Of a stretch of DNA of 64,000 nt, positions 34,088-64,000 are shown in pieces. The stretch is from contig JAMXDE010000021.1 of assembly GCA_026770025.1 (NCBI GenBank), forward strand, positions 124,001 to 188,000, read 5' to 3'. The notes beneath the pieces were generated by a model. That model was not told the DNA's origin. It did no database searches and saw nothing but the letters and a program-made list of their open reading frames with translations. Position 1 is the stretch's first letter. Every line of letters begins with the position of its first letter. Both the position numbers and the translations under genes were made by a program. The DNA comes from Craspedostauros australis (lineage: Eukaryota; Bacillariophyta; Bacillariophyceae; Mastogloiales; Achnanthaceae).

Positions 34088-34454
34088 TGTCTGCTTGTCC
34101 TAGTCGTATCATACACTCTGCTCGTACGTATTATTGGTCAGGCCCAATGGATGGTGTATGTCAGGGAGGGTCATCCTGCACCATAAATGCTGGGCATCGG
34201 CATCGATTCACGGAGTCTTTCTGTCCAACGGTGATGTCACCAGTCGCGAAGGTTCGAGGTTGTGAAGGTTCCCTGTCTGCTTGTCCTAGCATACTGGCAT
34301 GCGCTTTGCTCGGACGTATTATTGGTCAGGCCCAATGGATGATGTATGTCAGGGAGGGTCATCCTGCACCATAAATGCTGGGCATCGGCATCGATCCACA
34401 GAGTCTTTCTGTCCAACGGTGATGTCACCAGTTGTGAAGGTTCGAGGTTGTGGC
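34088..34454. repeat. tandem duplication of ~186 bp upstream of a secreted-protein gene
   Basis: Two head-to-tail copies, 34088-34273 and 34274-about 34454, each starting TGTCTGCTTGTCC and containing TATTATTGGTCAGGCCCAAT and CCATAAATGCTGGGCATCGG. Copies differ at roughly 25 positions. The second ends about 200 bp before the ATG at 34658, so it lies in the likely promoter. Confidence 0.8.
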
Positions 34455-34657
34455 GGAGCTTTGGCCTCCTTGGTGTCATGCCATCCTCGTACCAGGTTGC
34501 CTCATGCACAACATCGAAGACGCAAACAAAATGGCCCAAACAACCAACAAATCAAACTCTTCATCTCATAAATTCATCCAAGTTGTCAACCAATAACACC
34601 AAACAAACAACTATCAACCCTGAACGATCAATCACCAACCACCAAGTACCGACAACC

Positions 34658-37564
34658 ATGATCCACGCCAAGGCAGCCTTCGTCGCCTTTCTCGCTCTTG
34701 CCGACATGGCAACGGTCGACGCCGTGCTCCGCGGCAACAGGACTCCCGTGGATCCAACCAAGGAACTCCACATGATGATGATGACGACCCGCATCCTCAA
34801 GAACGCCGGCGGTGACACGAACACCAACAAGGGCAACAAAAACAACCAAGTGCCACCCACTGAAAACCCGGCTGTTGCAGAAACAACCGCGCCAACCGCA
34901 TTGCCTACTGGGCCGCCAACAGGCTTGATTTCGGAGATGCCCTCGATGGCACCTGTCGCTCAGCCAACCGCGTTGCCGACCTCTCAACCGACGCTCCTGC
35001 CAACTGCCAAACCATCAGCTGCCCCAGTGGTCTTTGATTCTACCGTCAAGGTCATTTGCAAGCCGGATGGCAATACCGCCCTCACACAGCAAGAGGTAAG
35101 CGCCAAGACCATCATCTGTAACTCTGCCAAGCCATCCTGCCGCGAAGCCATCAGCGCCGTCAAGGAATCCGAGCAACTGCAGAACTTCTTCGCGTGCGCC
35201 GGAGACCTCGGTGAAGGAGCTGCACGCAAGCTCTTCAACAAGTACGCATCCAGCGACGTGCTTGCTGGCCAATTGGCCGTGGTCGCTGCCACCAACGCAA
35301 TCCTCGTCACCGAACGACCAGACGCAATGAAGGCAGCATGCGCGGCCATCGCTGCGATGCAATCGCCTCCTGTCGCAGACCCATGCTGCCAAGGATCCTC
35401 TGGATGCACCTCAGTCACCGGTTCCGCCTCCATCTCTCCTCCATTCATGACCGTCGCCATCACATCATGCACTGGCGGCAGCGCATGCAAGGATATGGGC
35501 CCCAACCCGCTCATTCTCGATTCCTCCTGCACTGGAGACAGCGCATGCGAGTTGATGAACGAAAATGAAATCAATCCGTCCATCACAGGAGTCACCTTCA
35601 TCGGTGAGATGGCATGCACCACTCCTCACTCTTGCGAGGGAGTGGGACGCCGCTCCCATGGTGATGTGACTATCCATTCTGGTGCATGCGTTGGGTCAGA
35701 GGCATGCAACTCCACTGGCCGCCGTGTGGAGCAATCAGCACCATCATATCGCTTCCGCAGCCACATCGACATTGGCCCGAATGCGTGCGTAGGCGCCAAC
35801 GCCTGCAAGGATGCCCATTCCACTGTCAACCATGGTGCTGGTGGCAAGGCTGCAGGCAGCCTGACCATTGGTGCTGGTGGTTGCGCTGCTGATGGCTCAT
35901 GCGAGAAGATGGGCTTCAGTGACAGGATGAGGACGGATATCATTGTCCCTCCTGATGGATGCGGCAGTTTCGAAGGCTGCAGAGGATGCATGACGAAGAC
36001 GGAGTGCAGCCCTAATGAATTCTACTTCATCAGCAACGTGGACGGGGCCTGCCCAAAGGGAGGCAGCAGCTCTGGGGGCAATCCTACTGGTGACAAAGTG
36101 GAGGAGTACTGTATTGGCAAGGACACCTTGCCCACAGACTGTCCGACATTCTCTCCAACTCCTTTCCCAACACCTCTCACGTCCAGTCCAACCAGCGCCC
36201 CATCCAACTCGCCGTCTCGGACGCCCTCATATCTTCCGTCACACAGTCCATCGCAAGTTCCGTCTGAGATGCCGTCAGATATCCCGAGCTCACTCCCGTC
36301 AAGCAGTCCATCGCAAGTCCCGTCTGAGGTGCCGTCTGCACAGCCCTCCGACCTTCCGACTGAAGAGCCGACCGAACAGCCCACCAACCTTCCGTCCGTA
36401 CAGCCTTCCGTACAGCCGTCCGAGGAGCCATCCGCACTCCCATCCACCCAACCATCTGACATGCCATCAACAAGCTCACAGCCTTCGCAACTGCCTACAA
36501 GAACAAGTAGTCCGACGCTTCCCCCCCCGGCATCCTTCACCGTAGGATGTCTCGAAAAACCGGGTGACCACACAACAATGTTCAATTCCGTCACTGGCGA
36601 TGTATTGTGCGATGATGCAACAGGCACATGCGCGGACTTCGTCTCCATGGTTGATGCTCTGGCTGAAGGGAAGCGCAAGATGATCAAGAGCATCTTTGGA
36701 TGCAATGATGCAGACCCTCCACAGCCCGTGATGGTGGAGGTGGCGCAGGCACGCTTTAACAAGATCAAGAACGACGAAAATGTGATCACCGCATTGTTGG
36801 CCATCGTGGACGAGGGCAAGAAGCTCTTCACTGGCAGCGGGCCTGTGGTGACGAAGGCATGCGGTGTGGAATGCTGCACCGGTGATAATGCTTGCATCAC
36901 CGACCCTTCTAATAGTGGTGTCACGACGGTGAGCTCAAGGTCGTGTACCGGAAAAGACGCTTGCTTTTGGGTACATCCCAACGCAATCATCCTTGACAGT
37001 TGCAAGGGAGACAATGCCTGTTTTCAACTGCACTATTTCTTAAGTAAGCCAGCTGCTGGTATCGAAGTCGGATTCAGTGTGATCGGACCAAGAGCTTGTG
37101 TTGCAGAGCAGAGTTGCAGTGGGATTGGAAGTAACACATTTGGAAATATGCGAGTGGAAGAAGGATCATGTGATGAAGCATTTTCATGCTTTGGCCTTGC
37201 GGTGCGCAAAAGGCAACAGTTGTCTCCACCCCAGACGCCGATCGTGGCAAGTGTCTTCATCGGAAAGAATGCGTGCCAAAAGGGGAGTGCTTGCCTCAGA
37301 TTGCATCGCTCAACGAACAAATATGAAGGAAGCGTGATCATCGAAGATGATGCCTGCTCGGGCGAGAGCACGTGTTCCCAACTTGGCGAAAGTATCAGTG
37401 CAGCCAATGACATCATCATCAGAACAGGAGTCTGCACGACAGCCGCCTCCTGCACCAAGTGCGCCCAAGGATCACTGTGTACGTCAGCGACAGAAACGTA
37501 CGTAATTGACGATGCAGCCACAGACTGCCCTGGACCATCCCCATCAGCCTGTCAAGAACTCTAA
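34658..37564 (+). CDS. secreted cysteine-rich protein with PT-rich linkers, two modules
   Basis: 968 residues from the ATG at 34658 (the frame is open further upstream, but this start places a signal peptide, HAKAAFVAFLALADMATVDA, at the N terminus). Layout: signal peptide; Pro/Thr/Ala linker (about 66-124); module 1 (about 126-490) with a helical part and then repeats of ACxGxxAC type (SCTGGSACKDMG, ACVGSEACNSTG, ACVGANACKDAH); a long PS/PT linker of PSxxPS units (about 494-624); and module 2 (about 627-960), which repeats the same plan (GCLEKPGD.., CTGDNACITD, SCTGKDACFW, SCKGDNACFQ). Secretion to the cell wall or surface is inferred from the signal peptide and linkers, which are common in diatom secreted proteins. 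No enzyme domain is seen. Confidence 0.87.
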   Translation: MIHAKAAFVAFLALADMATVDAVLRGNRTPVDPTKELHMMMMTTRILKNAGGDTNTNKGNKNNQVPPTENPAVAETTAPTALPTGPPTGLISEMPSMAPVAQPTALPTSQPTLLPTAKPSAAPVVFDSTVKVICKPDGNTALTQQEVSAKTIICNSAKPSCREAISAVKESEQLQNFFACAGDLGEGAARKLFNKYASSDVLAGQLAVVAATNAILVTERPDAMKAACAAIAAMQSPPVADPCCQGSSGCTSVTGSASISPPFMTVAITSCTGGSACKDMGPNPLILDSSCTGDSACELMNENEINPSITGVTFIGEMACTTPHSCEGVGRRSHGDVTIHSGACVGSEACNSTGRRVEQSAPSYRFRSHIDIGPNACVGANACKDAHSTVNHGAGGKAAGSLTIGAGGCAADGSCEKMGFSDRMRTDIIVPPDGCGSFEGCRGCMTKTECSPNEFYFISNVDGACPKGGSSSGGNPTGDKVEEYCIGKDTLPTDCPTFSPTPFPTPLTSSPTSAPSNSPSRTPSYLPSHSPSQVPSEMPSDIPSSLPSSSPSQVPSEVPSAQPSDLPTEEPTEQPTNLPSVQPSVQPSEEPSALPSTQPSDMPSTSSQPSQLPTRTSSPTLPPPASFTVGCLEKPGDHTTMFNSVTGDVLCDDATGTCADFVSMVDALAEGKRKMIKSIFGCNDADPPQPVMVEVAQARFNKIKNDENVITALLAIVDEGKKLFTGSGPVVTKACGVECCTGDNACITDPSNSGVTTVSSRSCTGKDACFWVHPNAIILDSCKGDNACFQLHYFLSKPAAGIEVGFSVIGPRACVAEQSCSGIGSNTFGNMRVEEGSCDEAFSCFGLAVRKRQQLSPPQTPIVASVFIGKNACQKGSACLRLHRSTNKYEGSVIIEDDACSGESTCSQLGESISAANDIIIRTGVCTTAASCTKCAQGSLCTSATETYVIDDAATDCPGPSPSACQEL

Positions 37565-39640: not shown

Positions 39641-40345
39641 TGTTGGAAATCCGGGGTAACCCAGCCTTATTAGTTATATCTGGTTACCTATTCCTATTGT
39701 TGCATTCTCAGAACTGTGAGCATAACATCTTCATCTCTTTCAATTCCATTTGCCATAGCATGTATAATCCACAGTAACATCGTGAGATACTGCTGTGTTC
39801 ATCATGTCATGCAGCATGTACTTCATGTACATCTCATCATGCATCTCTTCATGCACTTCATATATTTCAGTAGTTTCATTTCGCTCAACATTCATGCGGC
39901 ACATTTCCGCAGTCATGCATCCATCTCGTCACAGGTTTCGTCCTTGATCTCTTGACACCTTTTCTTACGATTGGTGTCAAGCTTGATGTCCTTTCTGAAT
40001 TGTTCTAGTCCGCGAGTGGCACGTGTTTCGGTTCTCCTGATGGGGTGATCACAGACCTGCTGGTCATCGATGTTTCTCCTGTGACGTCGTTGTTTGGATC
40101 GTCGCGATGTCATGCTTGATGTTGGGACATCCTGTTTTTCGATGTCGTGGCTTTTCTTGATTCAGAGAGGACAGGCTTGTTTTCTTGTCAAGACTGAGAT
40201 CAGTCACGTTCGTCTTGAGTCACGGGTGTGATGAATAGGACTCAAAGGTGTGATCAACAAGAGTTGACTTCAGTCGTGATTGATAATTTTGGGAGGTGCG
40301 GCAATCATGGGTATCTTGACAAAGTCGTACCCTCGATTCCTAACA
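39641..40345 (-). repeat. copia LTR (3' LTR in element orientation)
   Basis: A 705-bp direct repeat, identical by eye with 46578-47282. It begins TGTTGGAAAT and ends GATTCCTAACA on the plus strand. Confidence 0.9.
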
Positions 40346-40356
40346 CCCTTCCATTG
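40346..40356 (-). other. polypurine tract of the copia element
   Basis: Minus strand AATGGAAGGG directly abuts the 3' LTR, the expected place for the plus-strand primer. Confidence 0.6.
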
Positions 40357-40959
40357 TCGCATCGACAACATATCATTCTGACTTCATACTCCCTTGACTC
40401 TCATCACCATTACTTCTCTCTCTCTTTCTTTCTTCACCTTTACTTCCCTCTCTCTCACCATCGTCATCAATCCATTGCTAACCACAATCAGATGGTGTGG
40501 CTCTTGTGTTTTCAACCCGATGTTGTTCATCAGTTGAGTCTGGAAGCGGATCTCATTTCCAGCCTCCTATAGTACAACGTGCTCTGCCTCCGTTGAGCTG
40601 AGTGTCATACTGTGCTGTGCCCTCGATCTCCAGATGATCGGCACTCCTTGTAGTAGGACGATATGTCCTCCCATGCTGATGCGATTGTCCTTGTCACCAC
40701 CGAATTCGTTGTTGGTGTAGATCACAATCTTTCATGCATCGTTCTCCAATGGACTTGGCTTCATCCGTAGTCCATATTCTTTCCTGTCCGACATGCACTT
40801 CATGATCCTCAGCATTTCCTTGTATGCTGCAGCTGTTGGCTCCATCCAACATCTTGGTCAGATCTCGCGTTGCATTGGTGATGTCGGGTTGGAAGTGCTT
40901 CATTTGATATAGCAGCATACCTACTCCACTTCGGTATCTGCTGTATCGGTCTCTGTCCA

Positions 40960-42305
40960 CCTTGGGTGAATCGCTATCCCTCTTGGATGCTTTGCCCTGG
41001 TGTTCCTGGTGTACCGTACCATTGCAGTTGCATCACGTCGTGGTTGGATACGATCTTGCAGCTGATGTAGTCTTCCAGATCATCCTCCACCTTGATACCG
41101 AACCGCTCTGCTTTGATATCTTCCATGAGTTTCTTCAACTCCTGTTCATCCTTGATGCATAGGCAGTCGTCGACATGGGTTCTGATCAATAGCAGTCTCC
41201 CTTCTTTGATTCCGAATCAGAAGGCATGGATCAACCCGACTTGGTCCGAATCCCAATTTGAGTAGGATGTCGACCAGCTTCTTCCATTGTCTTGCCCTTT
41301 GCACGAGTCCGTTGATCGTCTTCTGGATGGTTGCCATGGTTGGCGCGGTATCGGGACCTCCTGACTCGCCATAGGTGTCGTCCTTGCGTTACTGGAGGAC
41401 AGGCTATCCTCCTCGCGGTAGTACAGGTGTCAATCACGTCCGTACCCTTAGTCATAGTCATAATGACATGGCATATAAAGGTGTGACAAATAGTCTCCGA
41501 ACATGTGACGAATAGTATTCAAAGCTGTGACGAATAATGTTGGGAGGTGCGGCAATCACGGGTATTCCGACAAAGTCGTACCCTTGATTCCTAACATGCT
41601 CCATGCCCTTCCGGCAAAGCATGTAGACCTCCTCTTCGAGATCTCCATGTAGAAATGCAGTCTCAAGGTTGATAGTGGTGCTGTCCAATGTTCAGTAGCA
41701 TCTTCATTGTGAGCATTCCGCGGTAGGTTGCGTCATGCATCATGGGTGTGTTGCGTTGAGGAGTCGACTCCTGCGATCTGCGAGTATCCGCATGCAATGA
41801 GTCTGGCGATGAATACGCTGTTCCTCTTCTCCTTGAATACCCCCTTTGTCTTCACGCATCGCCGATCTCTTGGCATCTCACTCTTCTTGATCTTCTGCCA
41901 GACTCCTCGTCTGACCATGTTGTAGAACTCCTTATTGATGGCATCTCGCCATTTCTTTCGCTTCGCTGGATCCGCATGATCCCAGTATTCTCCAAATGTG
42001 GTGGGGTCCAACATCATAGCCGTGTATGCATGCTTCAGACGTCTTAACCCCTCTCTTGTGGTTGCTGAGGTCTTCTCTGTTTCCTCAGCTGACTCACCAC
42101 CTCCACTGCTTGAATCTGTGTCGGAGTGGTGTTCTGGCATGTTGTTGTGCGGTGCCAAGCCGCGTAGCATCCGTGGCATCCTTGCCACTGATCTCATGGG
42201 ATAGTACTCGAGGTCCGTGCCTTCAGAAGCTTGCCTCCGAGTCACTCGTACTTCGTCCCTTCCATTCGTCAGGATCCACATGATCCTATCATTCCTTAGG
42301 CGCAT
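40960..42305 (-). mobile_element. copia reverse-transcriptase relic
   Basis: Minus-strand fragments hold the N-terminal RT region (WRDAINKEFYNMVRRGVW, then ARLIACGYSQIAGVD), the AFLHGDLEEEVYM segment and the VDD-containing active-site segment, in the correct order 5' to 3' along the minus strand. The region is fossil and broken into several frames. A remnant of an LTR end lies within it (about 41460-41604). Confidence 0.75.
41460..41604. repeat. LTR-end remnant inside the copia interior
   Basis: GGGAGGTGCGGCAATCACGG through GATTCCTAACA resembles the right end of the 705-bp LTR (40285-40345) with several differences. It marks an older LTR fragment nested within the element interior. Confidence 0.65.
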
Positions 42306-45300
42306 ATAGACTCGGCATCATTCCAGTGTTGATGTGCACGAATCTCTCTCGCTGTCACGTTCGCTCTCAACATCCTGACTCGCAGCGATGAAGTCAATCA
42401 CTCTCATCCTTCATAGGATAGCATCAATCCTCGTACCTGCGACGTCCTTGTTGATGATTGACCCGTCTTGGTCGAAGTTGGGTCCGTCTGTTGCCACTGG
42501 AGCAGTCTTCGTCTCCTGTGCAGTTGCGTAGTCATCGTCATCTCCTGATTCTGATGCTTCGTTCGTCACCCTCGTTGGGTGTTGGCACATTGTAATAAGC
42601 TGCCAGCTCTGTTGTCGTGTTGCCTTGCAACCGCGTTGTCGATCGCCTTCATCCTTTTCTGGATAGCATCGATTCATCATGCTGCAGCTTCTTCGTCATG
42701 GGAGTTGTTGGTGGCCTCCTGCCATTCATCCTTCATTCATCTGAGGTTCCTCCCTTCCGGCTCTGTCATTCGATTCTTCATCCGACATGCCCGCGTCTCT
42801 CTCATTGATCGTATATCGACGTATCTAGACTCACTGTATCTGGAGTCTGCCTTCCGTGGCTCACGCTCTCATAGCTGTCTCCTTTCCAGATCCGAGTCTC
42901 TCTCGTCGATTTCATTCTCATCGCACACCGATCTCATATCTGTGCTTGTGGTATCTCGCCGATCATTCGGCGTCCGGTTCTTCTTGATCATCTCCCATGC
43001 TCACGCCATGGCTATATCACTGAACCGTACTATCATGGCCTCCCGCCATTCATTGCTCTTCTCGGGATCCACATGACCCCGTCATTCGTCAATTGTGGTT
43101 GGATCCAGCATCATTGCGTCATTTGCTTGCTCGGATCCCTCTTTGTTCTGTTGATAGTTCAATGCTTGGTTCGCAGTGATGAAGTCACCCAGACTCATCC
43201 TCTCATGAGTGGTGTCATTCATCATACCTGCGATATCTCTGTTGAATGTTGACCCATCAATATGATGGTTGGGTCCTCCTGTCGCCGGTAGTGTGGTAGT
43301 CGTCTCTTGAGTGGTGTCATAACCCTCATCATCTTTCTGATTCTGATTCTCCACTTGATCCAAGTTCTCGCTCCTCCTTTGGATGGGTGTATTATTGTAC
43401 CCCGCGAGAGCATTCAGCATCCTCGGCATGCGCGCAACAGGTCTTGCGATTGGGACCGTATTTGGTTCGCCTTCGACCATATCGTCTCGTCCCGTCTCAT
43501 CGTCCCTTCCGGATTCATCGTCGTCGTTATCGTACGATTCATTGTCCCCTTGGGTAGGGAGCAAGTCATCTTGCCCGCGAGCAGCGTCTTCTGTATCTGT
43601 ATCGTCTCTGGCTCTTCTGCTCTGATCAGCGTCGTCAGTCTCCATGCTTTGGATGGTATCCGATCGTCGCTCCCAAGTCACTCATCTATTTGGGGAAACA
43701 TTCCCCGATGTAGAGTCGTCATTTCCCAGGTCTATCAGTACTGACCTGTTGGCGTTCTTAATACTCTCAAATCGCCCATTGACTGATCCATCCATGTCAT
43801 GTCTCTCATGATTAGGATTCTGGTCGTTGCCAGTAATAGAGCCCAAACGTAATGGCTGTTGTCTTGTTGGCTGTTCTTTAGCTGTAGGCAGAGGCTTGAC
43901 TGGCAAGCGATCCGGACGAGAGTCTTCTGTTCCACAAGTAGTCAATTGAGAATACTGGTAGATGGTGAAGAAACGTGCGGATTATGAGATTAGTGCTATG
44001 GTTCTTTTCTTCGAGGGGAATCTCCTGTGATGTCCTGTATGACAATGCATGTGGGTTGTGTAGCCCAAGTACCGTGGGTCGAGATCCGTCGTCTGGGTTC
44101 TGTGAGAGACAATGGGCGATGATGCTCGTTGTTGTGGCTTTGGTTCCGTGCGTCGGCGTTTTGGCGATGGTGGGTGTCAGAAACTTGGTTATCGGAACCC
44201 CATTGGTTCCTTGACACGAATTCCGAAGATCCGCTTCAAGGTTCCGGATCTGTCTCCAAACGTGGGGTTCGGCGAAGTGTCCGTTCGATCTACTGGAATG
44301 CTGACGAGTCGGAGGATTCGTAGTCTCTCTCGCTAAGGTGGTTACTAGTTTAGCTCTATTAGCCAGATTCATCATGCGGTGCATACCGCTTGCGTGCGAC
44401 CCATGTATCCAATCAGCATCTGTTAGATCGGGGCGGCGTTATTGTTTTCCAGCATGTCGTTGATTGCGTATGCGTTGCGAATCACATCGAGTGTGCTCCG
44501 CACGCCAATCTCATGCATCATCTAGTGCAACGCGCGTGAGTGCACGCACCTGCACGGTCAACTTTCGAAGTCATCGATCGCATCATAGTAGATCGTCGAA
44601 GATTCAAAGTACACATCATTGGCAAACATCATGTTGCTCAATGGTTATCGAACAGAGAGGCAGATCGGATCTGCGTCCATGAGCAGTCCTCTGCACTCCT
44701 CCCTTTCCGCTTTGGTCCACAGGATTGCTCCTCTTGGACCATCCGGAATCTGAATAGAGAATGGGAGTTCTGGGCAGTCCATGCACCATGCATTCAATGG
44801 TCTGCGCTTAAGGCGCAACGGACATCGTGCATTGTTCATGTCCCAGTGCGACGCCTCATCGATCTTCCTGTCGGGGAAGCTCCAAATTGGAGTGAGATTA
44901 TGTACCGGCACTTGGATGGCGCGGTCAATCTCCTCGTCCACGTTCACTCCATCTATTTCTATTTCGTTCTCGTCTGTGTCCGCTTCGGTTGTTACGCCTT
45001 CGTCGAAATTGGTATCCTCCTCGTTGTCGTGAGTACGGCCGCCTTTCTCTTTATTCTTGGATGGAGAGAGTTCTCGGTTGATCAACTCTTCGTGGTCGAT
45101 CGTAGATCCGTAGTAGCCAAGCACTCCCAAAGTGTACTCGGCTGTCTCCTCCCTGGTCAACTCGTAGTCGTTGACTGGTGTTCCGCTGTTGAAGTCGGAG
45201 ACATCATCATTGTCAGTTATCACGAGTATCCATCGTGTAGTTTCCCGTGGTCACATTGTTGTTTTGTTGTTCGCGATTTCGGTGATGACCACGAATTTCG

Positions 45301-46577
45301 CGTTGGTCACATTTTTGATGTCGACCGCGTTTTTGTTGTTCGCGATTTCGGTGGTGACCACAAATTTCGTGTTGGTCACATTTTTGATGTCGGCCACGTT
45401 TTCGTTGGTGGCCGCGCACATCAGCTCGTCAATGATGAGGAGCGATGTTATCCATCCTGTCAATCGCGACGTTGGTCGACTCACCCTCCTGCATCGCAGC
45501 CTTTGTTTGTCATCGCGGTTGCTCTGCCTCTTGGCATCACCGCTATTCTTGCTTTTGCCTTTCATTGGCAAGCGTTGATCCGTCATCTCACTGTCGTGGG
45601 CATCACGGTGCGGACAGTTGGTCCCAAACCGATCGATCCGTAGTCAGCGTTTTCTCACTCTCACTGTTGTTGCCTCGTGCGCGCTTATAACCGTTTTTGA
45701 TACGGTGGCGGTCGTAGATGAGGCTTACAGCTTCGTGGATGTCTTGAATCATCATCGTGATTGATGGCGAGGATACCTCCTGTTCCTCGGCTTTCGTCTC
45801 GAGCGTGGGATCGAAGCGCGGTCGGACCTCCCGTCCACCTTGTTGCAGCACTGTCCCTTCTCATCGAAGCATGCACTTCCTGTGTTGCTATTTTTATTGT
45901 TGTCGCCAATTCATGGCTGGTAGGTTACATCCTTATCTCCGCGATCATATCGCAGCAGTATTCGCAGCCAGCACTCGAACCTGTATCACACGATGGCCAA
46001 CAGCGCCATGTGATCATCTCGGTGCTTCCATTGCTGCTCCTCGATTGCATCTCGTTGAGCTCCTTCAGCTATCTCGCCTTCATGGCGCAGTCTGCTGAGT
46101 CTGATGCGTCCGAGAGCGTGGCCAGCTGCGTTCGAATCTCTTCTTGCGTGCAGCTTGCTCTCGTGCTCCAACCTAGCCGTGAAGGTCTCCGTGCCTTCCT
46201 CGACTTCATGGTCCCATGACCATGGACAGTTCTTCCAATGCGTGTGTCGAGCGCCTCCTTGCTTCCAGTAGTACATGCAGTGCTTGCGCTTACCTCAGCT
46301 GCGGTCTCCACTCTGCTGGTGGACTCGCGGGGGCGCTCGATTCGATCATCATCATCATCTCGACGTCGTCGCTCGTGTGGGGGTTGCCGTGCCGTTCTTG
46401 GCGTCCATTGGCAAGGAGCACCGTGCTCCAGAGCGTCCTGCTCTCCTTTCTCTCGACACAGGGGACCATTACTTGCGATAGTCTTCGGTGTGGTTGATGG
46501 TCATGTCGACGATGGTGATGTTGGCTAGTGTTGGTGGTGATGGAAACGTTGGATTTCAATCAACACGTTTCGAAACG
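42306..46577 (-). mobile_element. copia interior, gag-to-integrase side (fossil)
   Basis: Minus-strand coding debris upstream of RT. A block at about 43080-43680 repeats the theme seen at 42000-42240 (ARMPRML..LAxxNN..., then AMMLDPTT), so the linker before RT exists twice. The 5' part (44.6-46.3 kb) is polar and charged, as expected of Gag. Broken throughout; no intact domain. Confidence 0.6.
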
Positions 46578-46582
46578 TGTTG
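46561..46582. repeat. perfect 22-bp palindrome at LTR/interior junction
   Basis: CAACACGTTT followed by CGAAACGTGTTG reads the same on both strands and overlaps the first bases of the LTR at 46578. It occupies the place where a primer-binding site is expected in the minus-strand element; I could not match it to a tRNA. Confidence 0.85.
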
Positions 46583-47282
46583 GAAATCCGGGGTAACCCA
46601 GCCTTATTAGTTATATCTGGTTACCTATTCCTATTGTTGCATTCTCAGAACTGTGAGCATAACATCTTCATCTCTTTCAATTCCATTTGCCATAGCATGT
46701 ATAATCCACAGTAACATCGTGAGATACTGCTGTGTTCATCATGTCATGCAGCATGTACTTCATGTACATCTCATCATGCATCTCTTCATGCACTTCATAT
46801 ATTTCAGTAGTTTCATTTCGCTCAACATTCATGCGGCACATTTCCGCAGTCATGCATCCATCTCGTCACAGGTTTCGTCCTTGATCTCTTGACACCTTTT
46901 CTTACGATTGGTGTCAAGCTTGATGTCCTTTCTGAATTGTTCTAGTCCGCGAGTGGCACGTGTTTCGGTTCTCCTGATGGGGTGATCACAGACCTGCTGG
47001 TCATCGATGTTTCTCCTGTGACGTCGTTGTTTGGATCGTCGCGATGTCATGCTTGATGTTGGGACATCCTGTTTTTCGATGTCGTGGCTTTTCTTGATTC
47101 AGAGAGGACAGGCTTGTTTTCTTGTCAAGACTGAGATCAGTCACGTTCGTCTTGAGTCACGGGTGTGATGAATAGGACTCAAAGGTGTGATCAACAAGAG
47201 TTGACTTCAGTCGTGATTGATAATTTTGGGAGGTGCGGCAATCATGGGTATCTTGACAAAGTCGTACCCTCGATTCCTAACA
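46578..47282 (-). repeat. copia LTR (5' LTR in element orientation)
   Basis: A 705-bp direct repeat of 39641-40345, with no difference seen by eye. Confidence 0.9.
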
Positions 47283-49109: not shown

Positions 49110-52100
49110 TTGGCTGTTGCGGTGGATGGTGTGGATTCCAGACCATCCTTGCACGGCATGACTCAGGGCACAGTTGGGCGTAGGTTGCGGCGGGCTGATT
49201 GCTGTGCGGGCGTCGTTGCTTTGCGATGCCCGGCTTGGGTGTTCGATCTTGACTCGCTGGGGCTGTCTGTCGGCTTTATCGCCGGTTGGTCTGGCTCTGA
49301 CGAGGATGGCGCGATCATCCGGCAGCTGCTTCCATTGGTGGTGCTGCAACCAGCAGCACCATCTGTGGCGCAGCTCAACAGCGTTAATCTGCTACTAGCC
49401 AAGCATTCCATCACCAAATCCCTCTTCTCTGCTGTTGATGCCAGTTCTCTCATTGTGGTTGCTTCATCGCATCGCTCTCGCTGGCTTCCACCTGGTTGGT
49501 CGGCGAGGTCTTGGCGCGTGGAGCACTCACAGGTCGGTGGCGTCACCGATGCCGTAGGCTCTCCGACTGTCTTCTGGCGATGCTCTTCGCCTCCACACGG
49601 CCCCCTACAGATTCATTCGGTTCCTCGCACTCTGCACTCGGTGCTGGACGACAAGCAATCGTCTCAGCACTGGCATCCTCCTCCACCCAACCTCAATGTT
49701 GGACCTCTTCGCGTCGTCCGCGTGGACGCCGTGAAGGTGTATGGTAAACCTGTGCTGCATCCTGGTGGTCTCATCCCGATCGGCTGCCTTCGGTCGGAGT
49801 TTGTGCTGGCGCCTTCCGTGTTCGGTCGTGGCAGGTGGTGTGCTTGCCAACTTCGGTCGTTCGAGCGTCTTCGTGCGCTCGACTTCCCTGATACGGTTGC
49901 TCTCACCCTTCCTTCTGCTTCTGCTTCTGCGCTCCCAGGCAAATTGTTCTTCTCTGTTTTGTCCCAACTTTGCACATTCAACGAGGGGGGTACTTTTCTT
50001 TTCGATTCTTCTTCCTTTGCGACTGGCTGCCGTCCTGTCAGTTCGCCTCCATCTTCCGCCGGTCGCGGCTTGAGTCCGTCTGCAGTGGTATTCATTCCTG
50101 GATCCGCTGCAATGACATCTTCCGCTCACCGTGCTACTATCAACTCTACGTCTCTACCATCGCCATCTAGCGACTCCAAGCCAACCACTTCATCGCTCCA
50201 CACAGTCAACTCTGTCTCTCCTCCTGCCTCGTCATCTGCCAACGACAACTCGTCTTGTACTCCTGATTCCACAGAATCATCAGCAGCCAGTCACCCTCCC
50301 ATCAAGACATGGGTGGCTCCATCAGAACTTCAGCGCAGCGTGCTGGAGGAGGCAGAATGGAACCGGCGCGCTCAGAAGGCTACCAAGTCCGACGACGCAT
50401 CCATTCCCACTCACCTCTGGATGGATCAGCTGGTCAAGGGTTCTGCAAATCAATGGGATACGGCGGATATGCAGAACCTGGAAGCCGGATGCAACGGCCT
50501 GAGGAGATGGATGTTGGGATGGTGGAGTCGGCGCGTCACCACCTCCTTCTGGAGATGGTACTGTCAGCATTACCTCTCCCCGTGTCGTGTCACCACCAAG
50601 GTTGTTGCTGTTTCAACTGATGGCATCTACCGATGGAACCGGAAAGGCAGGGCAAGGTATGCAGCATGGCGAAGACAGAGGCGACAGTCCTCACCTGATA
50701 TATTCGATGCTGCTTGCGATGCAATCGCTCGAGCGTGTCGCTCCACTTGGTGGAATTGGGACGACGGATCTCGCCCTCTGTTCTGGAGGTGGGCCAAGGA
50801 ATATCAGACTATCATTCAAGAGGGTCTGCCGGTACACTTTCAATCGTCGCCGCCAAGCTACACTCAACCGCAACGCAACGCCAACGATCCCCACATTCGA
50901 GACATGACGGCAGCCAAGCTGTGCAAGGTCCGACAAAAGCGATACATCATCCCAGGCACTGTTCACTCCCTCACTTCGTTCTTCGGGGTACCGAAGGGAG
51001 AGACCGACATCCGCATGGTGTATGATGCAACTGCAAGTGGCCTCAACGACGCTGTCTGGGTGCCTGGGTTCCCACTCCCGACTCTGGACACTCACCTACG
51101 AGCTGTGGGCACCAACACCTTCATGGCTGACAACGACATCGGAGAGATGTTCCTGAATTTCATGCTTCATCCATGCCTGAAGCGGGTCTGCGGTGTCGAC
51201 ATCACACACTATCTGACTGAAGAGGACCCCAAGGCTGGTAACAAGCTTGTTTGGGAGCGATGGGACCGGGCAGCAATGGGCTTACAGTCTTCGCCTTATC
51301 AAGCTGTCCAAGCCATGCTCTTTGCCAAAGAAGCTATCCTGGGGTCCCACACTGATCCGCTCAACATGTTCCAATGGAGCCAAGTCCGGCTGAACCTCCC
51401 TGGATCGGTGAACTACAATCCATCTCTTCCTTGGGTTTCGAAACTGGACACCAATGGCAACATTGCAGCAGATGCCTTCATCTACGTGGACGATGTCCGT
51501 CCTACTGGAGGCTCACAAGACATCTGCTGGCGAGCTACCAAGCGAGTGGGACACATGCTGGCCTACCTCGGTATTCAGGACGCGGCCAGAAAGCGTCGAG
51601 CTGCTGCCAGGACCCCTGGTCCTTGGACTGGGGCAGTGGTGGTGGCCCATGACTCAGGTGTGTACGCCACGGCAACACAAGAAAAATGGGACAAGGGCTG
51701 CGATCAGGTGGCCTCTGTCCTGGCAGATCTTGTGAAGAGTGACACCATCGAGCGAAAGAAGCTGGAACGCATACGAGGATTCTTGAACTACCTTTGTCAG
51801 ACCTACAAGCCAATGACACCCTACCTGATTGGATTCCACCTCACCATAGATGGATGGAGAGAAGGAAGGGATGCAGACGGCTGGAGAATCCTCAACTACA
51901 TCAATCAGACAACATCAACACATGTCGCAACAGGTGATGCCACTCCTCCACCTGAGTACGTCAAGCCTGCTCCGCGTCTTGCTTCCGACCTTGAGGCTCT
52001 TCATCAGTTCTTCGCACCATCAGAGCCACCACTTCGTCTTATGCGGCCTGGTCATTCCATTCAAGCCTGGTACGGTTTTGCAGATGCATCACAAGCCGGA

Positions 52101-52751
52101 TTTGGCGCTTCCCTTCAGATTGGCAATGACATTGCCTTCCAGTACGGCGAATGGACCTCAGAAGAAAATGAAGCCAGCACATCAAACTGGCGTGAGCTCA
52201 AGAACTTGGTCGAAGCCTTGAAAGAATGGACTGCCAAGTTCAAGCTGGAAGGGAGCGAGGTGTTCCTCTTCACGGATAACTCCACAGCTGAGAGTGCGTT
52301 TTGGAAGGGAAATTCAACTTCCAAACGCTTGGCGGACCTGGTGCTTGAGATGAGACCGCTTGAAATGAGGTCAAACATGATCTTGCACGTCATACATGTC
52401 AGTGGAGATCGGATGATACTTCAAGGCACAGACGGATTGTCTCGGGCTGATCACAGCACCGGCGTTATGACTGGACAGAGCATGCTGCAACACATCCCTC
52501 TCCACTTGCAGCCATCAGATCGAAGAGGCAATCATCTCAAGGACACCATGAGAACATGTATGGAGGGAATCGAATACGAATGGCTCACCCCTGAAGGATG
52601 GTACAGTACAGGCCAACGGCAAGGCAACTTTGTATGGGAATCTGCTCCTGCAGCTGCGGATGCGATGGTCGATCAGATTGGCAAAGCTCGGCACAAGCGA
52701 CCCCAGAACCTGCACGTGGTCTGCATACCCAGATTGATGACTGGTCGGTGG
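49110..52751 (+). mobile_element. RT and RNase H frame of the YR element
   Basis: A long open frame up to the TRIM insertion. The first third (to about 50110) is polar and lacks known motifs. From about 50900: FFGVPKGETDIRMVYDATAS, NDIGEMFLNF, RAAMGLQSSPYQAVQ and the active-site FIYVDDVRPTGG, an RT of DIRS/Ngaro type. RNase H follows from about 52060: WYGFADASQAGFGASL, NWRELKNLV, LFTDNSTAESAFW, and QGTDGLSRADH, a signature stretch of this group. The TRIM interrupts the frame immediately downstream. Confidence 0.82.
52748..52751. repeat. target-site duplication GTGG (left of TRIM)
   Basis: GTGG at 52748-52751 recurs at 53415-53418, directly outside the TRIM. Confidence 0.75.
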
Positions 52752-52958
52752 CTATTAGAGCACTATCGAAAAATCACGAGGGGAGAGCAAAAGCAAAGTA
52801 CCATGCCGGGATTCGAACCCGGAACCTCAGTTAGAATTACTGGTGCTCTACCGTTGAGCTACAGGCGATGCGATTGCTGATCCGAACACAAGTGAAATTT
52901 ATAGATAGTGGGGGCTACGGGAGTAACGTACTTAGCACTATTCGATTTTGTGCTGATA
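52752..52958 (-). repeat. TRIM LTR (3' LTR in element orientation)
   Basis: A 207-bp repeat with near-inverted ends (CTATTAGAGCAC and GTGCTGATA). It carries the tRNA-like unit at 52799-52868. Confidence 0.85.
52799..52868 (-). ncRNA. tRNA-like sequence with Pol III boxes (in 3' LTR)
   Basis: On the minus strand: A box TAGCTCAACGGT (52850-52861), D stem GCTC/GAGC, T arm CCGGG-TTCGAAT-CCCGG with perfect B box GGTTCGAATCC (52809-52819), and a TTTT run (52789-52792) as possible terminator. The anticodon stem CAGT/ACTG closes a seven-base loop AATTCTA, giving UUC at the anticodon position but A instead of U at position 33. The acceptor stem pairs poorly. So it is tRNA-derived, not a working tRNA gene. 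Confidence 0.7.
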
Positions 52959-52966
52959 CTCCCCTA
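52959..52966 (-). other. TRIM polypurine tract
   Basis: Minus strand TAGGGGAG directly abuts the 3' LTR. Confidence 0.6.
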
Positions 52967-53194
52967 CGCTACGACCGTGGACCACCCGCTCAAGAGCACT
53001 ATGACGGAAAGTTGTCATCTCCCGCGTCTCCCCATCTCGGGGCACCCTCATTGCTGGGTGGCTAATACTGCCAGACGAAGTGGGAGTGCTGCCGTAGCAG
53101 ACAAGCGTGAGACTGGGTCGAAATCCGGTGATCGCAACGCGCCCACGAAGGCGTGTTGTGCAAGGTTGTCCTAACTCAGCGATGTAGAACTAGC
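52967..53194 (-). other. TRIM interior with consecutive hairpins
   Basis: Non-coding. Plus-strand hairpins by eye: ATGAC/GTCAT (53001-53018), CCCC/GGGG (53030-53042), CACCC/GGGTG (53043-53060), CTGC/GCAG (53089-53100), ACTGG/CCGGT (53112-53129) and a 9-bp stem CAACGCGCC/GGCGTGTTG (53135-53158). Such regularity suggests a folded RNA, possibly for packaging or dimerisation. Confidence 0.5.
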
Positions 53195-53207
53195 TGCGAC
53201 TGTTAAT
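53195..53207 (-). other. TRIM primer-binding site (half-tRNA-Asn)
   Basis: The plus strand TGCGACTGTTAAT is identical to tRNA-Asn(GUU) nucleotides 27-39 (60903-60915). It abuts the 5' LTR with no gap. Drosophila copia is primed by a tRNA-iMet fragment ending at the same nucleotide, 39. Confidence 0.72.
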
Positions 53208-53414
53208 CTATTAGAGCACTATCGAAAAATCACGAGGGGAGAGCAAAAGCAAAGTACCATGCCGGGATTCGAACCCGGAACCTCAGTTAGAATTACTGGT
53301 GCTCTACCGTTGAGCTACAGGCGATGCGATTGCTGATCCGAACACAAGTGAAATTTATAGATAGTGGGGGCTACGGGAGTAACGTACTTAGCACTATTCG
53401 ATTTTGTGCTGATA
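53208..53414 (-). repeat. TRIM LTR (5' LTR in element orientation)
   Basis: A 207-bp copy of 52752-52958, with its tRNA-like unit at 53255-53324. Confidence 0.85.
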
Positions 53415-53418
53415 GTGG
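53415..53418. repeat. target-site duplication GTGG (right of TRIM)
   Basis: Matches 52748-52751. Confidence 0.75.
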
Positions 53419-53440
53419 CGGAGGAAGCTGTTGCGGTTGA

Positions 53441-55042
53441 GTGACTTCTACTTCAAGGTTGAACGGTGTCGTGAATGGCCTGCTCACCTGCTGGAGCCTT
53501 TGTTTGTCTTCATTTGTCTTCCTTATCTCTCTTGGAACCCCAGACTCGACGAACAACGCAAGCTATTGGAAGAACCAAATGAGGTTCTGCTGCAGCGAGG
53601 TGTGTGGGAAGCTGATCCAATCAGGTGCAGGCGTGTTCTGCGCGAACTTCTCCAGTCCGCGCGGGCCCTTTGCCCCCTGTAGGTCAGCTTGGTGCGGCTC
53701 GTGCTATGGCGAGATTGGAGACAAGAACTTTCCTGTCCAAACTGCCAACGACGATGACGGTATCGATCTCACTCCGGATATCGACAAGACTCGCTTCCGA
53801 ATAGCCCGAAACGGTGACCATCTTATGGTGCCGTTTCAGTGCGATCGCTGTCACTTCCGCAATATCATGCTCCGCGAGCCACTTAACCACAGACAACAGG
53901 ATCGAGAGATGCTTGTCTACATTCGACGAGCCAACCTCGACGCCTTTTGGAGCAGAGAACCATCCACTGTCGCGGCAAATCTTCGCGAAGCCCGACGCAT
54001 GGAAGCTTTTGCGGATCGGTTGAACATCCCATCCATCAGCGCTCCAATGGGGCCCTTCCCGCTTCAAGACTCGTGTGGCATGGCTGGAGCAATGGCAGTA
54101 CTCGACAGGTCCTTGGATACAGGTCGCTATGCGACCAATGTTCAATGGGAGACCTTTCGACGCACCAGGTCGGCCATCACCAATATTCACCAAGCGGGGG
54201 TTGCTGGACTTGGGGAGTCTGTCATGGCATATGAGAGGTCCCGCATGTGGATGTCAAGTGTGCCGTCGCATCAGTTCTGGTTCACTCGATTCATGGAAGG
54301 CACCCACAGGAGAGTGGGGCAGATCCGCAAGCCAGCTCGTGCCTACACCATTGACGAGATCCATGGGCTGGAAGCTCTGTTGGAGCAAGAGTGGAGAATG
54401 GACAACGATCACTCCCGACGCAAGAGAACCGCAGAAGTGGCTATGCTTACAATTGTGGCCTTCTGCACCGGGCTGAGGGGAGAGGAGATGCTACAAATCG
54501 ACCTTCTTGCTACCTCTTCGAGTCTCAAGCATCTTCAAGATACGAAGCTTCCGCACGCACGGCTTGCCATCATCGGTCGCACCAAAGGCAACAGGCATGA
54601 CGGAGCACGATTCGACGTTCCATGTGTGAAGACAACTTCAGGCACCGGATTACAACCCGGCACATGGATCAAGCGAATGGTGCGACAAGTCGAAGGTGCG
54701 GGACTTCGTAATGGCAAGCTTTTGACGGGGAAACTGAATCCACCGAGGCTCCTGGAGTTTCGGGACGACGTATATGTGGCGCTGGAGGCCTTGCAGGCCC
54801 AAGGCATAATCGATACAGAGGTGGATATCCGAGACAAATACGGTCTTGACCGCTCAGCTCGCAGAGGGTCCACTTCTCACGCGATCAACATGCGTGTTCC
54901 AAGAGATATCATCATGGCAAACAACAGATGGCGAACCGAAGCCAACTCAGTCTCGGGAAACCCAAGACTGGACATGGTGGACACCTACTCAGCACTGGAG
55001 TCACTGCTTCCTGCTGTATTGGAGTACTCGAAGCAGATGTGA
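53441..55042 (+). mobile_element. tyrosine recombinase of the YR element
   Basis: A 533-codon open frame. It has a cysteine-rich part (WCGSCYGE; CDRCHFRN) and then a helical domain. The catalytic domain (about 300-533) contains FCTGLRGEEMLQIDL with the first active-site arginine, RGSTSHAINMRVPRD as the HxxR-like region, and DMVDTYSALESLLPAVLEYS with the candidate tyrosine. It replaces integrase in YR retroelements and would insert the circular DNA by recombination. The frame looks whole. Confidence 0.8.
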
Positions 55043-60876: not shown

Positions 60877-60949
60877 TCACCTTTAGCTCAGTTGGCAGAG
60901 CGTGCGACTGTTAATCGCAAGGCCACTGGTTCGATCCCAGTATGGTGAG
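60877..60949 (+). tRNA. tRNA-Asn (GUU), right copy
   Basis: The same 73-nt cloverleaf as at 30435-30507, anticodon GUU at 60910-60912. It marks the inner end of the right arm of the inverted duplication. Nucleotides 27-39 (60903-60915) match the TRIM primer site. Confidence 0.9.
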
Positions 60950-61293
60950 CTTTTACTCAATCTGTTTTGGACAAGTCCCCTTTTGTTCCTCCTTCGACTC
61001 CGCCCAATTCAACCAGGGCTCGCAATCAGTGTTTTGCATCCACAAGTGCGCGAAGGTTGCTGTCTCGTCCATAGTCGTAGTATCCTTTTTGTACTCAGGA
61101 CACAAACGCACCTTGGAACATGACCCTGACGGTGTACTGTTTTGTTAGTCGTATCGACCCACGTGAGCGTTGGCATCAACAGCAGCAACATCGTACGTGA
61201 AGTGGTCTGCGCAGCGCATGCACAGGGATCCATGCGACGCATGCGTACGCAGCTCCACTCCACCCTAACAATGCATATTGGCTGCTTCTATCC
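60950..61293. other. helicase 3' flank (right copy)
   Basis: 344 bp, inverted counterpart of 30084-30434 with small differences. No gene seen. Confidence 0.45.
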
Positions 61294-62880
61294 TTATTTC
61301 TTGTGTCGGTACTTCTTGGTTTGCTTGCCAATCGTGCGGCCACGACCACCACCCGAATACCCTTTGTGGATTTCATTCTGGATCATGCCTTCCAGCCCGT
61401 CCTCTTCCGACCCCATGCGTCCAGGCTTGCGCTTACGGCGACCTCCGTGGCCCTTGGCGGCTGCCAGCTGCTCCTTCAATTCCCGTGTCGCCAACCGCTG
61501 CGCATCGTTGACGCGTTCCAACAGCACCAGCACCGTCTCTTCATCCAGCTTGTATTCGGGCAGCTTCCTGCCGAGCAGGTGCTCCAATCGCTGGTACACC
61601 TCGACATCGTACTGCGTCACCATCGCGATGGCCTTTCCGGATCTTCCAGCACGCGCCGTGCGTCCGACTCTGTGAATGTAATCCTTTCCATGTCCGGGCA
61701 GATCGAAGTTGATGACCACATCCACCTGTGGGATATCCAAACCACGGCTGGCCACGTCCGTGCAGATGAGGATGGATCGGTCGCCCGTTGTGAAATTGTG
61801 TAGCGCACCCAAACGCTTCGGCTGCGACATCTGACCGTGCAAGCAAATTGCCGGGAAACCGAGGTTGCGCAGCATCAGCGCCAGCCTTTGGACGTTGTTG
61901 CATGTGGCCCCGAAGACCAAAATGGACTGCCCGGCGTGTTCGTGGATGAGGTAGGTCAGGTAGCAGTCCTTGTACTTGGCGGGGATGAAGAGGTAGTTCT
62001 GCAGCAATTGCTTGGGGGTGGAGAACTTGGTCGATACCTCCACCTTGACGGGATCCTTGAGCGCCGCTCGTTGCAGCTTCTGCACCTTCGACGTCATGGT
62101 CGCGGAGAAGAGGAGCGTCTTGCGGCCCTCTGACGGAATGACCTCAAGCAGCTCGTTCAGCTCCTGCTCGAAATCCAACGAAAGCATGCGGTCGGCCTCA
62201 TCAAGGACGAGATACCTCAGCTTGCGCAGATTGAAGCCCTTCGTGTTGGTGAGGTGATCGAGCAACCGTCCCGGCGTGGCAACGATGATGTGCGGATTGC
62301 GTCCCAACGCGATGGATTGCTGTGTCATGGGCACCCCACCCACGACGCACACGCTGGTGGCCCCGATGGTCGTGCCCAACGCATCGACGACCTTGTGGAT
62401 CTGAAAGGCCAGCTCACGTGTTGGTGCCAGCATGACCGCGAACGCAGCACCGCGCACAGGATTGTTCAGCAGGTCCTGCAGGACCGGCAGGCAGAACGCC
62501 GCTGTCTTGCCCGATCCTGTTTCCGCCAAACCAATGATGTCTCTGCCCTCCAGAGCTTCCGGCAGGACCTTCTCTTGGATGCGGCTGGCGAACTTCCAGC
62601 CCAACGAATCGCACGCCTTGCACAGTGGCTCGCAAACGCCAAGCGTTTCGAATTTGGTCGTCGTGATGATCCCTGTGTCGTTGTCTTCTTCTGCCGCCAA
62701 TTCTGCGCTCTTGCCAGAATCGTTGCTTGCATCGTTGCCATCTGCGGCGGCGGCGGCGGCCAGCTTGGTCTCCTTGTCGGCTACATCTTCTTCCACCTTT
62801 CTCTCTCGAGGTTTGGATTCTGCCTTGCTCGACTTCTTGACCTTGTTGTTGCTCTTGGATTTCTTGTCGCTTGATCCCAT
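61294..62880 (-). CDS. DEAD-box RNA helicase, DDX47/Rrp3 type (right copy)
   Basis: 528 residues, nearly identical to the left copy (28479-30083). Differences are concentrated in the low-complexity N terminus: the Lys-rich run is shorter, the alanine run is longer and one NDTS-like unit is missing. The helicase core from the Q motif to the C terminus shows no difference that I can see in the translation, and all motifs (AETGSGKT, DEAD, SAT, HRVGRTARAG) are intact. Both copies therefore look functional. Confidence 0.95.
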   Translation of the reverse strand: MGSSDKKSKSNNKVKKSSKAESKPRERKVEEDVADKETKLAAAAAADGNDASNDSGKSAELAAEEDNDTGIITTTKFETLGVCEPLCKACDSLGWKFASRIQEKVLPEALEGRDIIGLAETGSGKTAAFCLPVLQDLLNNPVRGAAFAVMLAPTRELAFQIHKVVDALGTTIGATSVCVVGGVPMTQQSIALGRNPHIIVATPGRLLDHLTNTKGFNLRKLRYLVLDEADRMLSLDFEQELNELLEVIPSEGRKTLLFSATMTSKVQKLQRAALKDPVKVEVSTKFSTPKQLLQNYLFIPAKYKDCYLTYLIHEHAGQSILVFGATCNNVQRLALMLRNLGFPAICLHGQMSQPKRLGALHNFTTGDRSILICTDVASRGLDIPQVDVVINFDLPGHGKDYIHRVGRTARAGRSGKAIAMVTQYDVEVYQRLEHLLGRKLPEYKLDEETVLVLLERVNDAQRLATRELKEQLAAAKGHGGRRKRKPGRMGSEEDGLEGMIQNEIHKGYSGGGRGRTIGKQTKKYRHKK

Positions 62881-63556
62881 GATGCCGTTCTCCGTGGAGT
62901 ACTCTAGAGCATAGTGTATTGTCTCTTACCCCGGTTCTTGTAGTATTGGTCACAATGCATCTACTGCTGGTGGTGCTTGTTGTACTTGTGGAGGTTCGTT
63001 GCTAACGGTGCCATTCATCACTCGTATCAATGCGACGACGAACAGAACAGGACTGAATGGTGTTGTTGGTTGGACTTCTCTCCTTTTCATGTCCCGGTAT
63101 TTGTTTCCTTCCACGCAGTTTTGGTGGTTGTTGCTCAATTTCGCGCGCGAAGGACAGATTGACAGACCGTGTGAGGATCATTGAGTCTTGTTGATTCACA
63201 CTTGAAGCGTCACGAAGAGGAACACGTTTCCACGATGATCGTGTATGCAGACACAAGACTCCGAGAGTCCAATCCCACCAGACAGACATGGGACCAGTGA
63301 AATAGACATCCTACATGGTAAAGGTCAACAACTAACCAGCAGAAAGCGAAAGCACCATACAGCGAGATGATGCGGGAGCTAACGAGCCGATGGGGAAGCT
63401 AACGAGATGATGGGGAAGCTAATGAGATGATGAACCAGATGTGAGCCCCCTCCGTCAACTTCACATAAAAACGAAAAGAGAACAACCAGAAAGGTCCACA
63501 GCAAACTCACACAACTACCAATCGGAACAACAATAATCAATCGCGAGAAGGAAACA
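62881..63556. promoter_or_regulatory. divergent promoter region (right copy)
   Basis: Inverted counterpart of 27818-28478 with GAGTACTC at 62897 and the CTAACGAGATGATGGGGAAG-type tandem repeat at 63375-63435, which has a changed unit composition. Confidence 0.5.
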
Positions 63557-64000
63557 ATGAACAAACTCATCCAGGACATTTCAGATGTGGCTGCACAGGC
63601 AGTTAGCGATCATGGCAAGGATGCTGCCCGGCTTCTCACTGGCACGATCATTCTTACAATTGCGATGGAGGTGTGGTGCATCGACACCGTGAAGGGGCTC
63701 CTATCTCAGCCCAAGGGGAAAGACTTGTACATGAAGGGAATTGCAGCCAACATCCTGTACCTCGTCATTCTGGGTGTTCCAGGCTTCATCATCTCTTGCA
63801 TGATTGCGATCGATGAACATGCCCTGGACATTCATCGGCAGATACTCAGCGTTGCTTGCTTCCTCTTTGGGCACGGAGCGCAGTACTACGTCATCCACAA
63901 GGCGTTCCACGAATACCCCGCGCTGTACAAATACCACAAGTTCCACCATCAGTTCAACGTCTACGCCCCGCCAAGCGCAGCCAACGCTGTGTCGTTCACA
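63557..64000 (+). CDS. fatty-acid hydroxylase superfamily protein, copy C (cut by window edge)
   Basis: 148 codons from the ATG, still open at the window end. The N terminus matches copy B (NKLIQDISDVAAQAVSDHG); histidine clusters HKAFH and HKFHH are present. Residues 87-107 differ from both A and B (DEHALDIHRQ and SVACFLFGHG versus DEQGMDIHRQ and SVVCVLLGHG). It is the continuation of the right arm of the inverted duplication. Confidence 0.85.
   Translation, partial: MNKLIQDISDVAAQAVSDHGKDAARLLTGTIILTIAMEVWCIDTVKGLLSQPKGKDLYMKGIAANILYLVILGVPGFIISCMIAIDEHALDIHRQILSVACFLFGHGAQYYVIHKAFHEYPALYKYHKFHHQFNVYAPPSAANAVSFT

What the first reader, a model, noticed from the sequence alone, without database searches (positions are those of the whole stretch)
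52752..53414. TRIM-like LTR element carrying a tRNA-like Pol III unit in each LTR
A 663-bp non-coding insertion has 207-bp direct repeats, a primer site, a purine tract and a 4-bp target duplication, the parts of a TRIM. Each LTR holds a tRNA-derived unit with a perfect B box, an A box and a T run in the element's own orientation. Plant Cassandra TRIMs carry 5S rRNA sequences in their LTRs; I know of no described family that does the same with a tRNA. Pol III transcription of the LTR, or mimicry of a tRNA for RNA processing, are possible consequences (inference).
Basis: partly seen in the sequence, partly recalled or inferred. Interest (0 to 1): 0.88.

Follow-up and report, generated by a model that had tools for sequence, protein, structure and literature searches.

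The report
Mini-retrotransposon with tRNA-like terminal repeats
A 0.66-kb jumping element in what looks like an algal genome carries a piece of a tRNA gene in each of its end repeats; the arrangement is real, but this kind of element (Helenus) was described in 2024, so the possible news is only the host group.

Summary
Two identical repeats of 206-207 bp flank a 249-250 bp interior. The element lies on the minus strand. The best boundaries are 52753-53414: LTRs of 206 bp (TAT...ATA), a 5-bp target duplication GTGGC and, directly at the LTR, a 14-nt complement of tRNA-Asn nt 27-40, an anticodon-loop ('half-tRNA') primer site as used by some Ty1/copia elements. Without the insert the interrupted ORF runs on in frame for 87 codons (supportive, not proof). 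Each LTR holds a decayed tRNA-like unit in the element's direction (Rfam tRNA, 35.4 bits) with A and B boxes and T runs.

TRIMs with tRNA-like sequences in their LTRs were named Helenus by Kojima (PMC10886601, 2024); most fungal ones share the anticodon-loop primer site and 5-bp duplication. Its host table lists fungi, animals and one lycophyte. The window looks like a diatom or another stramenopile (inferred, unproven), so this may be the first in that group. Copy number and Pol III transcription could not be tested: no whole genome is held. Verdict: new member of a known kind; interest low to moderate.

The parts
52753..53414 (-). whole element, 662 bp under the 5-bp target-duplication reading (52752-53414, 663 bp, under the 4-bp reading)
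   Evidence: repeat pair, empty site in frame
52748..52752 (.). target duplication, left copy, GTGGC
   Evidence: sequence
53415..53419 (.). target duplication, right copy, GTGGC
   Evidence: sequence
53209..53414 (-). 5' LTR, 206 bp, TAT...ATA
   Evidence: boundary inferred from inverted termini, primer-site position and 5-bp duplication
52753..52958 (-). 3' LTR, 206 bp, identical
   Evidence: boundary as for the 5' LTR
53195..53208 (-). primer-binding site GATTAACAGTCGCA, complementary to tRNA-Asn(GUU) nt 27-40
52959..52965 (-). short purine tract AGGGGAG next to the 3' LTR
53260..53319 (-). tRNA-like unit in the 5' LTR (Rfam RF00005, 35.4 bits, model 6-65)
52804..52863 (-). tRNA-like unit in the 3' LTR (Rfam RF00005, 35.4 bits, model 6-65)
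53307..53317 (-). A box TAGCTCAACGG, 5' LTR (3' LTR copy: 52851-52861)
53265..53275 (-). B box GGTTCGAATCC, 5' LTR (3' LTR copy: 52809-52819)
53225..53248 (-). T4 (53245-53248) and T5 (53225-53229), possible Pol III terminators; 3' LTR copies at 52789-52792 and 52769-52773
53354..53359 (-). TATAAA upstream of the tRNA-like unit; 3' LTR copy at 52898-52903
60877..60950 (+). tRNA-Asn(GTT) gene whose product fits the primer site (second copy 30434-30507 on the minus strand)
49110..52751 (+). interrupted ORF, part left of the insert; RT and RNase H motifs seen by eye, no database match
   Evidence: no credible hit and, for 50610-52751 only

Best explanation
It is a non-autonomous LTR mini-retrotransposon (TRIM) of the Helenus type. 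Shown from sequence: identical LTRs, a primer site for a tRNA-Asn half, a short purine tract, a flanking target duplication within an ORF, and a tRNA-derived unit in each LTR in the element's direction. Inferred: RNA polymerase III starts in the 5' LTR from the A and B boxes, reads through the T runs there and stops in the 3' LTR, giving an RNA of roughly 540-560 nt with a repeat of about 85-105 nt at both ends. A Ty1/copia-type element would supply reverse transcriptase and integrase, priming from the anticodon-loop half of tRNA-Asn. The tRNA-like unit probably came from a tRNA-derived SINE or tRNA gene that entered an LTR, and serves as a promoter, not as a tRNA. The stated confidence is for the structural reading as a Helenus-type TRIM; the Pol III step alone I put at about 0.65.
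For: 207-nt identical repeats; outer target duplication; ORF open for 87 codons across the empty site in the right frame; 14-nt tRNA-Asn complement exactly at the junction, against 0 of 127,978 masked positions with 12 nt; tRNA covariance match in each LTR above the gathering score; A and B boxes, 1 chance pair in 100 random windows; the same anatomy in fungal Helenus, mostly with anticodon-loop primer sites and 5-bp duplications; half-tRNA primers found only in Ty1/copia in a plant survey (PMC6317226, passages); a decayed Copia-type element (RVT_2 trace, E 0.00066, 19.8 bits against a cut-off of 31.6) in the same window.
Against: Only one copy is known; no other copy or solo LTR was seen in the window, and no eukaryote genome could be searched. 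The open frame across the empty site is not rare in this window: 1832 of 8972 sampled positions are open as long. T4 and T5 runs in the 5' LTR could end a Pol III transcript at about 85-105 nt, before the interior. The TATAAA upstream would suit Pol II as well. The Copia-like element in the window has another interior start and shares no word longer than 10 nt with this element on the same strand, so the partner is unknown. The purine tract is only 7 nt. Kojima's list of anticodon-loop primers names tRNA-Tyr, Ile, Asp and iMet; tRNA-Asn-GTT is named as a primer elsewhere in the same section, without saying which part of it.
Confidence: 0.85

Rival explanations
1. A Pol II-transcribed TRIM whose LTR happened to receive a tRNA-derived SINE or tRNA pseudogene; the unit is passenger DNA with no role in transcription. 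(This rival shares the structure of the best explanation and differs in the promoter step only.)
For: TATAAA ends 36 bp before the A box and could seat Pol II; the acceptor stem is decayed, 4 of 7 pairs; T runs follow within the same LTR.
Against: A and B boxes and the D and T arms are intact and in the element's own direction; Kojima reports conservation around these boxes in Helenus families.
Confidence: 0.25
2. A tRNA-derived SINE of about 207 bp that moves alone; the pair is a chance tandem of two SINEs.
For: A tRNA-like unit with A and B boxes is the usual SINE head; only one pair is known.
Against: One target duplication flanks the whole 0.66-kb unit; the repeats are 100% identical; a tRNA primer site abuts the first repeat.
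Confidence: 0.03
3. The LTR makes a tRNA-like RNA that is processed as a tRNA or acts as decoy or primer.
For: D and T arms fit the tRNA model and T runs follow.
Against: No ARAGORN call there at default; with the LTR alone none at 100, 95, 90 and 85% of its thresholds, and at 80% one poor call on the other strand, after which the script stopped; acceptor stem 4 of 7 pairs; the primer site fits tRNA-Asn nt 27-40.
Confidence: 0.05

Closest known systems
Helenus (Kojima 2024, PMC10886601), fungal branch
   Same: TRIM with a tRNA-like unit with A and B boxes in each LTR; anticodon-loop primer site in most fungal families; tRNA-Asn-GTT named as primer once (part of the tRNA not stated in the text); 5-bp target duplication; most families' tRNA folds judged unfit to work
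   Different: Host looks like a stramenopile alga, a group absent from the paper's Table 1; sequence similarity to published Helenus families not testable (supplements not open to look-up)
Cassandra (plant TRIM; as described in PMC10886601)
   Same: Pol III promoter from a small-RNA gene in each LTR
   Different: Cassandra carries a 5S rRNA sequence, this element a tRNA-like one
Ajax (nemertean TRIM, PMC10886601)
   Same: TRIM with a small-RNA promoter in the LTR and 5-bp duplication
   Different: 5S rRNA-derived; [quoted passage not shown]
Ty1/copia elements with half-tRNA primers (Drosophila copia and Ty5; plant Osser, Bryco, Gymco-II, Bianca)
   Same: primer site fits the anticodon-loop half of a tRNA
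   Different: those are autonomous coding elements and use other tRNAs (plant ones: Met or Ile halves); this element codes for none of the proteins

Membership tests
Helenus / TRIMp3 | short non-coding LTR element with two LTRs (screened under 1000 bp; families 311-1263 bp) | tested here: met
   662-663 bp, identical LTRs; stops in all six frames, longest open stretch 89 codons
Helenus / TRIMp3 | tRNA-derived sequence inside each LTR with A and B boxes | tested here: met
   Rfam tRNA 35.4 bits in both; boxes
Helenus / TRIMp3 | primer-binding site and polypurine tract at the ends of the interior | tested here: met
   14-nt tRNA-Asn complement; the purine tract is short, 7 nt, and was not tested against chance
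Helenus / TRIMp3 | target duplication of 4 (animals) or 5 bp (fungi, plants) | tested here: met
   GTGGC on both sides; 4-bp reading not excluded
Helenus / TRIMp3 | multi-copy family with solo LTRs and conserved boxes | not testable with these tools
   no own genome; only one copy in the window
Helenus / TRIMp3 | transcription by RNA polymerase III | not testable with these tools
   sequence only; also not validated for published Helenus according to its author
Helenus / TRIMp3 | sequence kinship with a published Helenus consensus | not testable with these tools
   consensus sequences are in supplements and Repbase; no look-ups of supplements are allowed
Cassandra | 5S rRNA-derived sequence in the LTR | tested here: not met
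   cmscan of the element at E up to 1 gives only tRNA
tRNA-derived SINE | single unit flanked by its own target duplication | tested here: not met
   GTGGC flanks the pair; interior with primer site between the repeats

The most novel reading that the evidence does not exclude
A Helenus-type TRIM born independently in stramenopile algae, far from fungi, animals and plants, with a double promoter in its LTR: a TATA element plus A and B boxes. Pol III would make a short RNA of about 85-105 nt that stops at the LTR's own T runs, and the full-length RNA would come from read-through or from Pol II, so that the choice of polymerase sets mobility.
Probability: 0.2. Interest if true: 0.6.

Novelty: new member of a known kind. 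Interest (0 to 1): 0.36.

Why it matters
If the host is a diatom or relative, Helenus-like elements extend to a further eukaryotic supergroup. That would support Kojima's view that Pol III-promoter TRIMs arise repeatedly, and warn that tRNA counts in algal genomes can be inflated by such LTRs. The anticodon-loop primer site again ties this design to Ty1/copia machinery.

Tried and rejected
Chance repeat or tandem SINE: rejected by the single outer target duplication, identity of the repeats and junction primer site. 4-bp duplication with 207-bp LTRs: not excluded, but less fitting than 5 bp with 206 bp. Copia-like element of the window (39641-47282) as partner: no shared word over 10 nt on the same strand and another interior start. 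Functional tRNA: see rivals. Naming the parent tRNA of the LTR unit: given up, since no eukaryotic tRNA set was at hand; I only weighed recalled sequences while thinking and use none of them. A primer site in the opposite (plus) orientation was not tested against a tRNA set.

Copies elsewhere: exact patterns gave 0 matches in viral contigs (4 patterns) and genome contigs (2 patterns), and blastn gave none in plasmids and phages; these collections are of viruses, bacteria, archaea and plasmids, so they say little about a eukaryote. A relative of the interrupted ORF (piece 51000-52751) in viral contigs: one stretch matched a pattern, none was confirmed. Families: Pfam gave nothing up to E 5 for 49110-52751 and only a chance-level hit (E 0.13) for 53441-55042; PDB gave chance-level hits for 50610-52751 and 53441-55042.

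Controls that were mended: the first primer-site control counted the tRNA genes themselves (65 of 63,950 positions) and was replaced by the masked one; the line 'identical DNA: False' compared strings of unequal length and was corrected.

Full report
What is there. The window has two identical 207-nt direct repeats at 52752-52958 and 53208-53414; blastn finds them nowhere else in the 64 kb. All six frames of the element carry stops; the longest open stretches are 89 codons (plus strand), 83 (minus) and 76 (plus) and were not tested for homology. The same 5 bp, GTGGC, stand on both sides. Cutting out the insert with one copy of the target leaves the frame of the ORF that begins at 49110 open for 87 further codons to a TAG, while the other two frames of the right flank stop after 6 and 7 codons. 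As a control, 1832 of 8972 sampled positions of this gene-dense window are open for 87 codons or more in the frame looked at, so the open frame supports a single insertion but does not prove it.

Orientation and ends. The element lies on the minus strand. Next to its 5' LTR stands GATTAACAGTCGCA, complementary to nt 27-40 of tRNA-Asn(GUU), whose gene occurs twice in the window. With both tRNA genes and the element masked, 0 of 127,978 positions on both strands match 12 nt; 11 of 127,982 match 10 nt and 3 of 127,980 match 11 nt. Only this tRNA was compared, as the window holds no other. The match begins at the last base of the 207-nt repeat. Reading the LTR as 206 bp puts the primer site directly at its end, gives inverted termini TAT...ATA and turns the target duplication into 5 bp (52748-52752 and 53415-53419). 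The purine tract next to the 3' LTR is short: AGGGGAG.

The tRNA-like unit. Rfam's tRNA model matches both LTRs on the minus strand, 35.4 bits against a gathering score of 29, model positions 6-65 of 71. D arm and T arm fit; the acceptor stem forms 4 of 7 pairs. ARAGORN at default calls only the two tRNA-Asn genes in the window; on the LTR alone it gives nothing at 100, 95, 90 and 85% of its thresholds and at 80% one poor call on the other strand. A box TAGCTCAACGG, B box GGTTCGAATCC, T4 and T5 runs and an upstream TATAAA occur in each LTR; the A-box pattern also occurs once by itself at the end of the interior (52961-52971). The A+B pattern at tRNA-like spacing, chosen after seeing the sequence, is found at 4 places in the window, namely the two LTRs and the two tRNA genes, and once in 100 first-order Markov random windows, both strands.

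How it likely works. Shown: structure, target duplication, primer site, promoter-like boxes. Inferred: Pol III starts about 10-18 nt before the A box; to make a template for reverse transcription it must pass the T4 and T5 runs of the 5' LTR and stop at those of the 3' LTR, giving about 540-560 nt with terminal repeats of about 85-105 nt. The T runs in the 5' LTR are the main weakness of this scheme; Pol II from the TATAAA is the main rival. Half-tRNA primers were found only in Ty1/copia lineages in a survey of plant elements (PMC6317226, passages), and fungal Helenus is tied to Copia by the same kind of site, so a Copia-type helper is likely. A Copia-like element with 705-bp LTRs lies at 39641-47282 (RVT_2 trace E 0.00066, below Pfam's cut-off), but it has another interior start and shares at most 10 nt in a row with this element, so it shows only that the superfamily is probably present.

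Comparison with what is known. Kojima 2024 (PMC10886601; [quoted passage not shown] Most fungal families have primer sites for the anticodon loop of a tRNA and make 5-bp duplications; the text lists tRNA-Tyr, Ile, Asp and iMet for the anticodon loop and names tRNA-Asn-GTT as a primer chosen once, without saying which part. The author predicts a working tRNA for only a few families and finds no complement between the LTR's tRNA-like unit and the primer site. The present element meets each structural feature that could be tested. The paper's Table 1 lists fungi, metazoans and Selaginella, and its text has no occurrence of diatom, stramenopile or oomycete.

Is it in print for algae or stramenopiles? 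Searches for Helenus with TRIM terms (1 paper, Kojima's), TRIMp3 (4 papers, of which the other 3 are on other subjects by title), TRIM with diatom and tRNA-derived (1 paper, PMC4247016, whose passages concern trimmed tRNAs and tRNA fragments), tRNA-like with LTR and box B (15 of 100 listed) and non-autonomous LTR with stramenopile and TRIM (15 of 1,300 listed) showed none; the last two were capped listings of which I saw titles and abstract starts only. Subscription journals and Repbase reports are not covered. Maumus 2009 on diatom LTR elements (PMC2806351, passages) has no occurrence of tRNA or TRIM in its main text.

Host. No record names it. Long uninterrupted ORFs, a protein with PSxxPS-type repeats (34346-37564) and a presequence-like start in 24324-25304 suggest a diatom or another ochrophyte; this rests on recalled traits and reading by eye, about 80% in my estimate. 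The claim of a new host group hangs on it.

Verdict. A real and well-formed element, a member of Helenus by its structural definition, known kind. The extension to stramenopiles is a modest novelty that a genome search could settle.

Noticed in passing
39641-47282: LTR element with identical 705-bp LTRs (TGTTAG...CCAACA on the minus strand), GAGAGA on both sides, and decayed Copia-type coding pieces; RVT_2 trace only, below Pfam's cut-off.
   Followed up: partly
27374-30507 and 60877-64000: Inverted duplication of about 3.1 kb, 95.6% identical, reaching the window's end, with a tRNA-Asn gene in each copy and a DEAD-box helicase-like ORF in each (by eye).
   Followed up: no
49110-55042: The insert splits an ORF with a YVDD motif and RNase H-like motifs (by eye); the next ORF (53441-55042) looks by eye like a tyrosine recombinase. 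Together they resemble a DIRS-like element, but no Pfam or PDB match supports this.
   Followed up: partly
25569-26460 and 27025-27928: Direct duplicate of a fatty acid hydroxylase-like gene, 91% identical (Pfam match tested for the first copy only); a further inverted match, 84%, at 63446-64000.
   Followed up: no
34084-34452: Direct repeat of about 183 bp, 91% identical, that overlaps the start of a PSxxPS-rich ORF (34346-37564).
   Followed up: no
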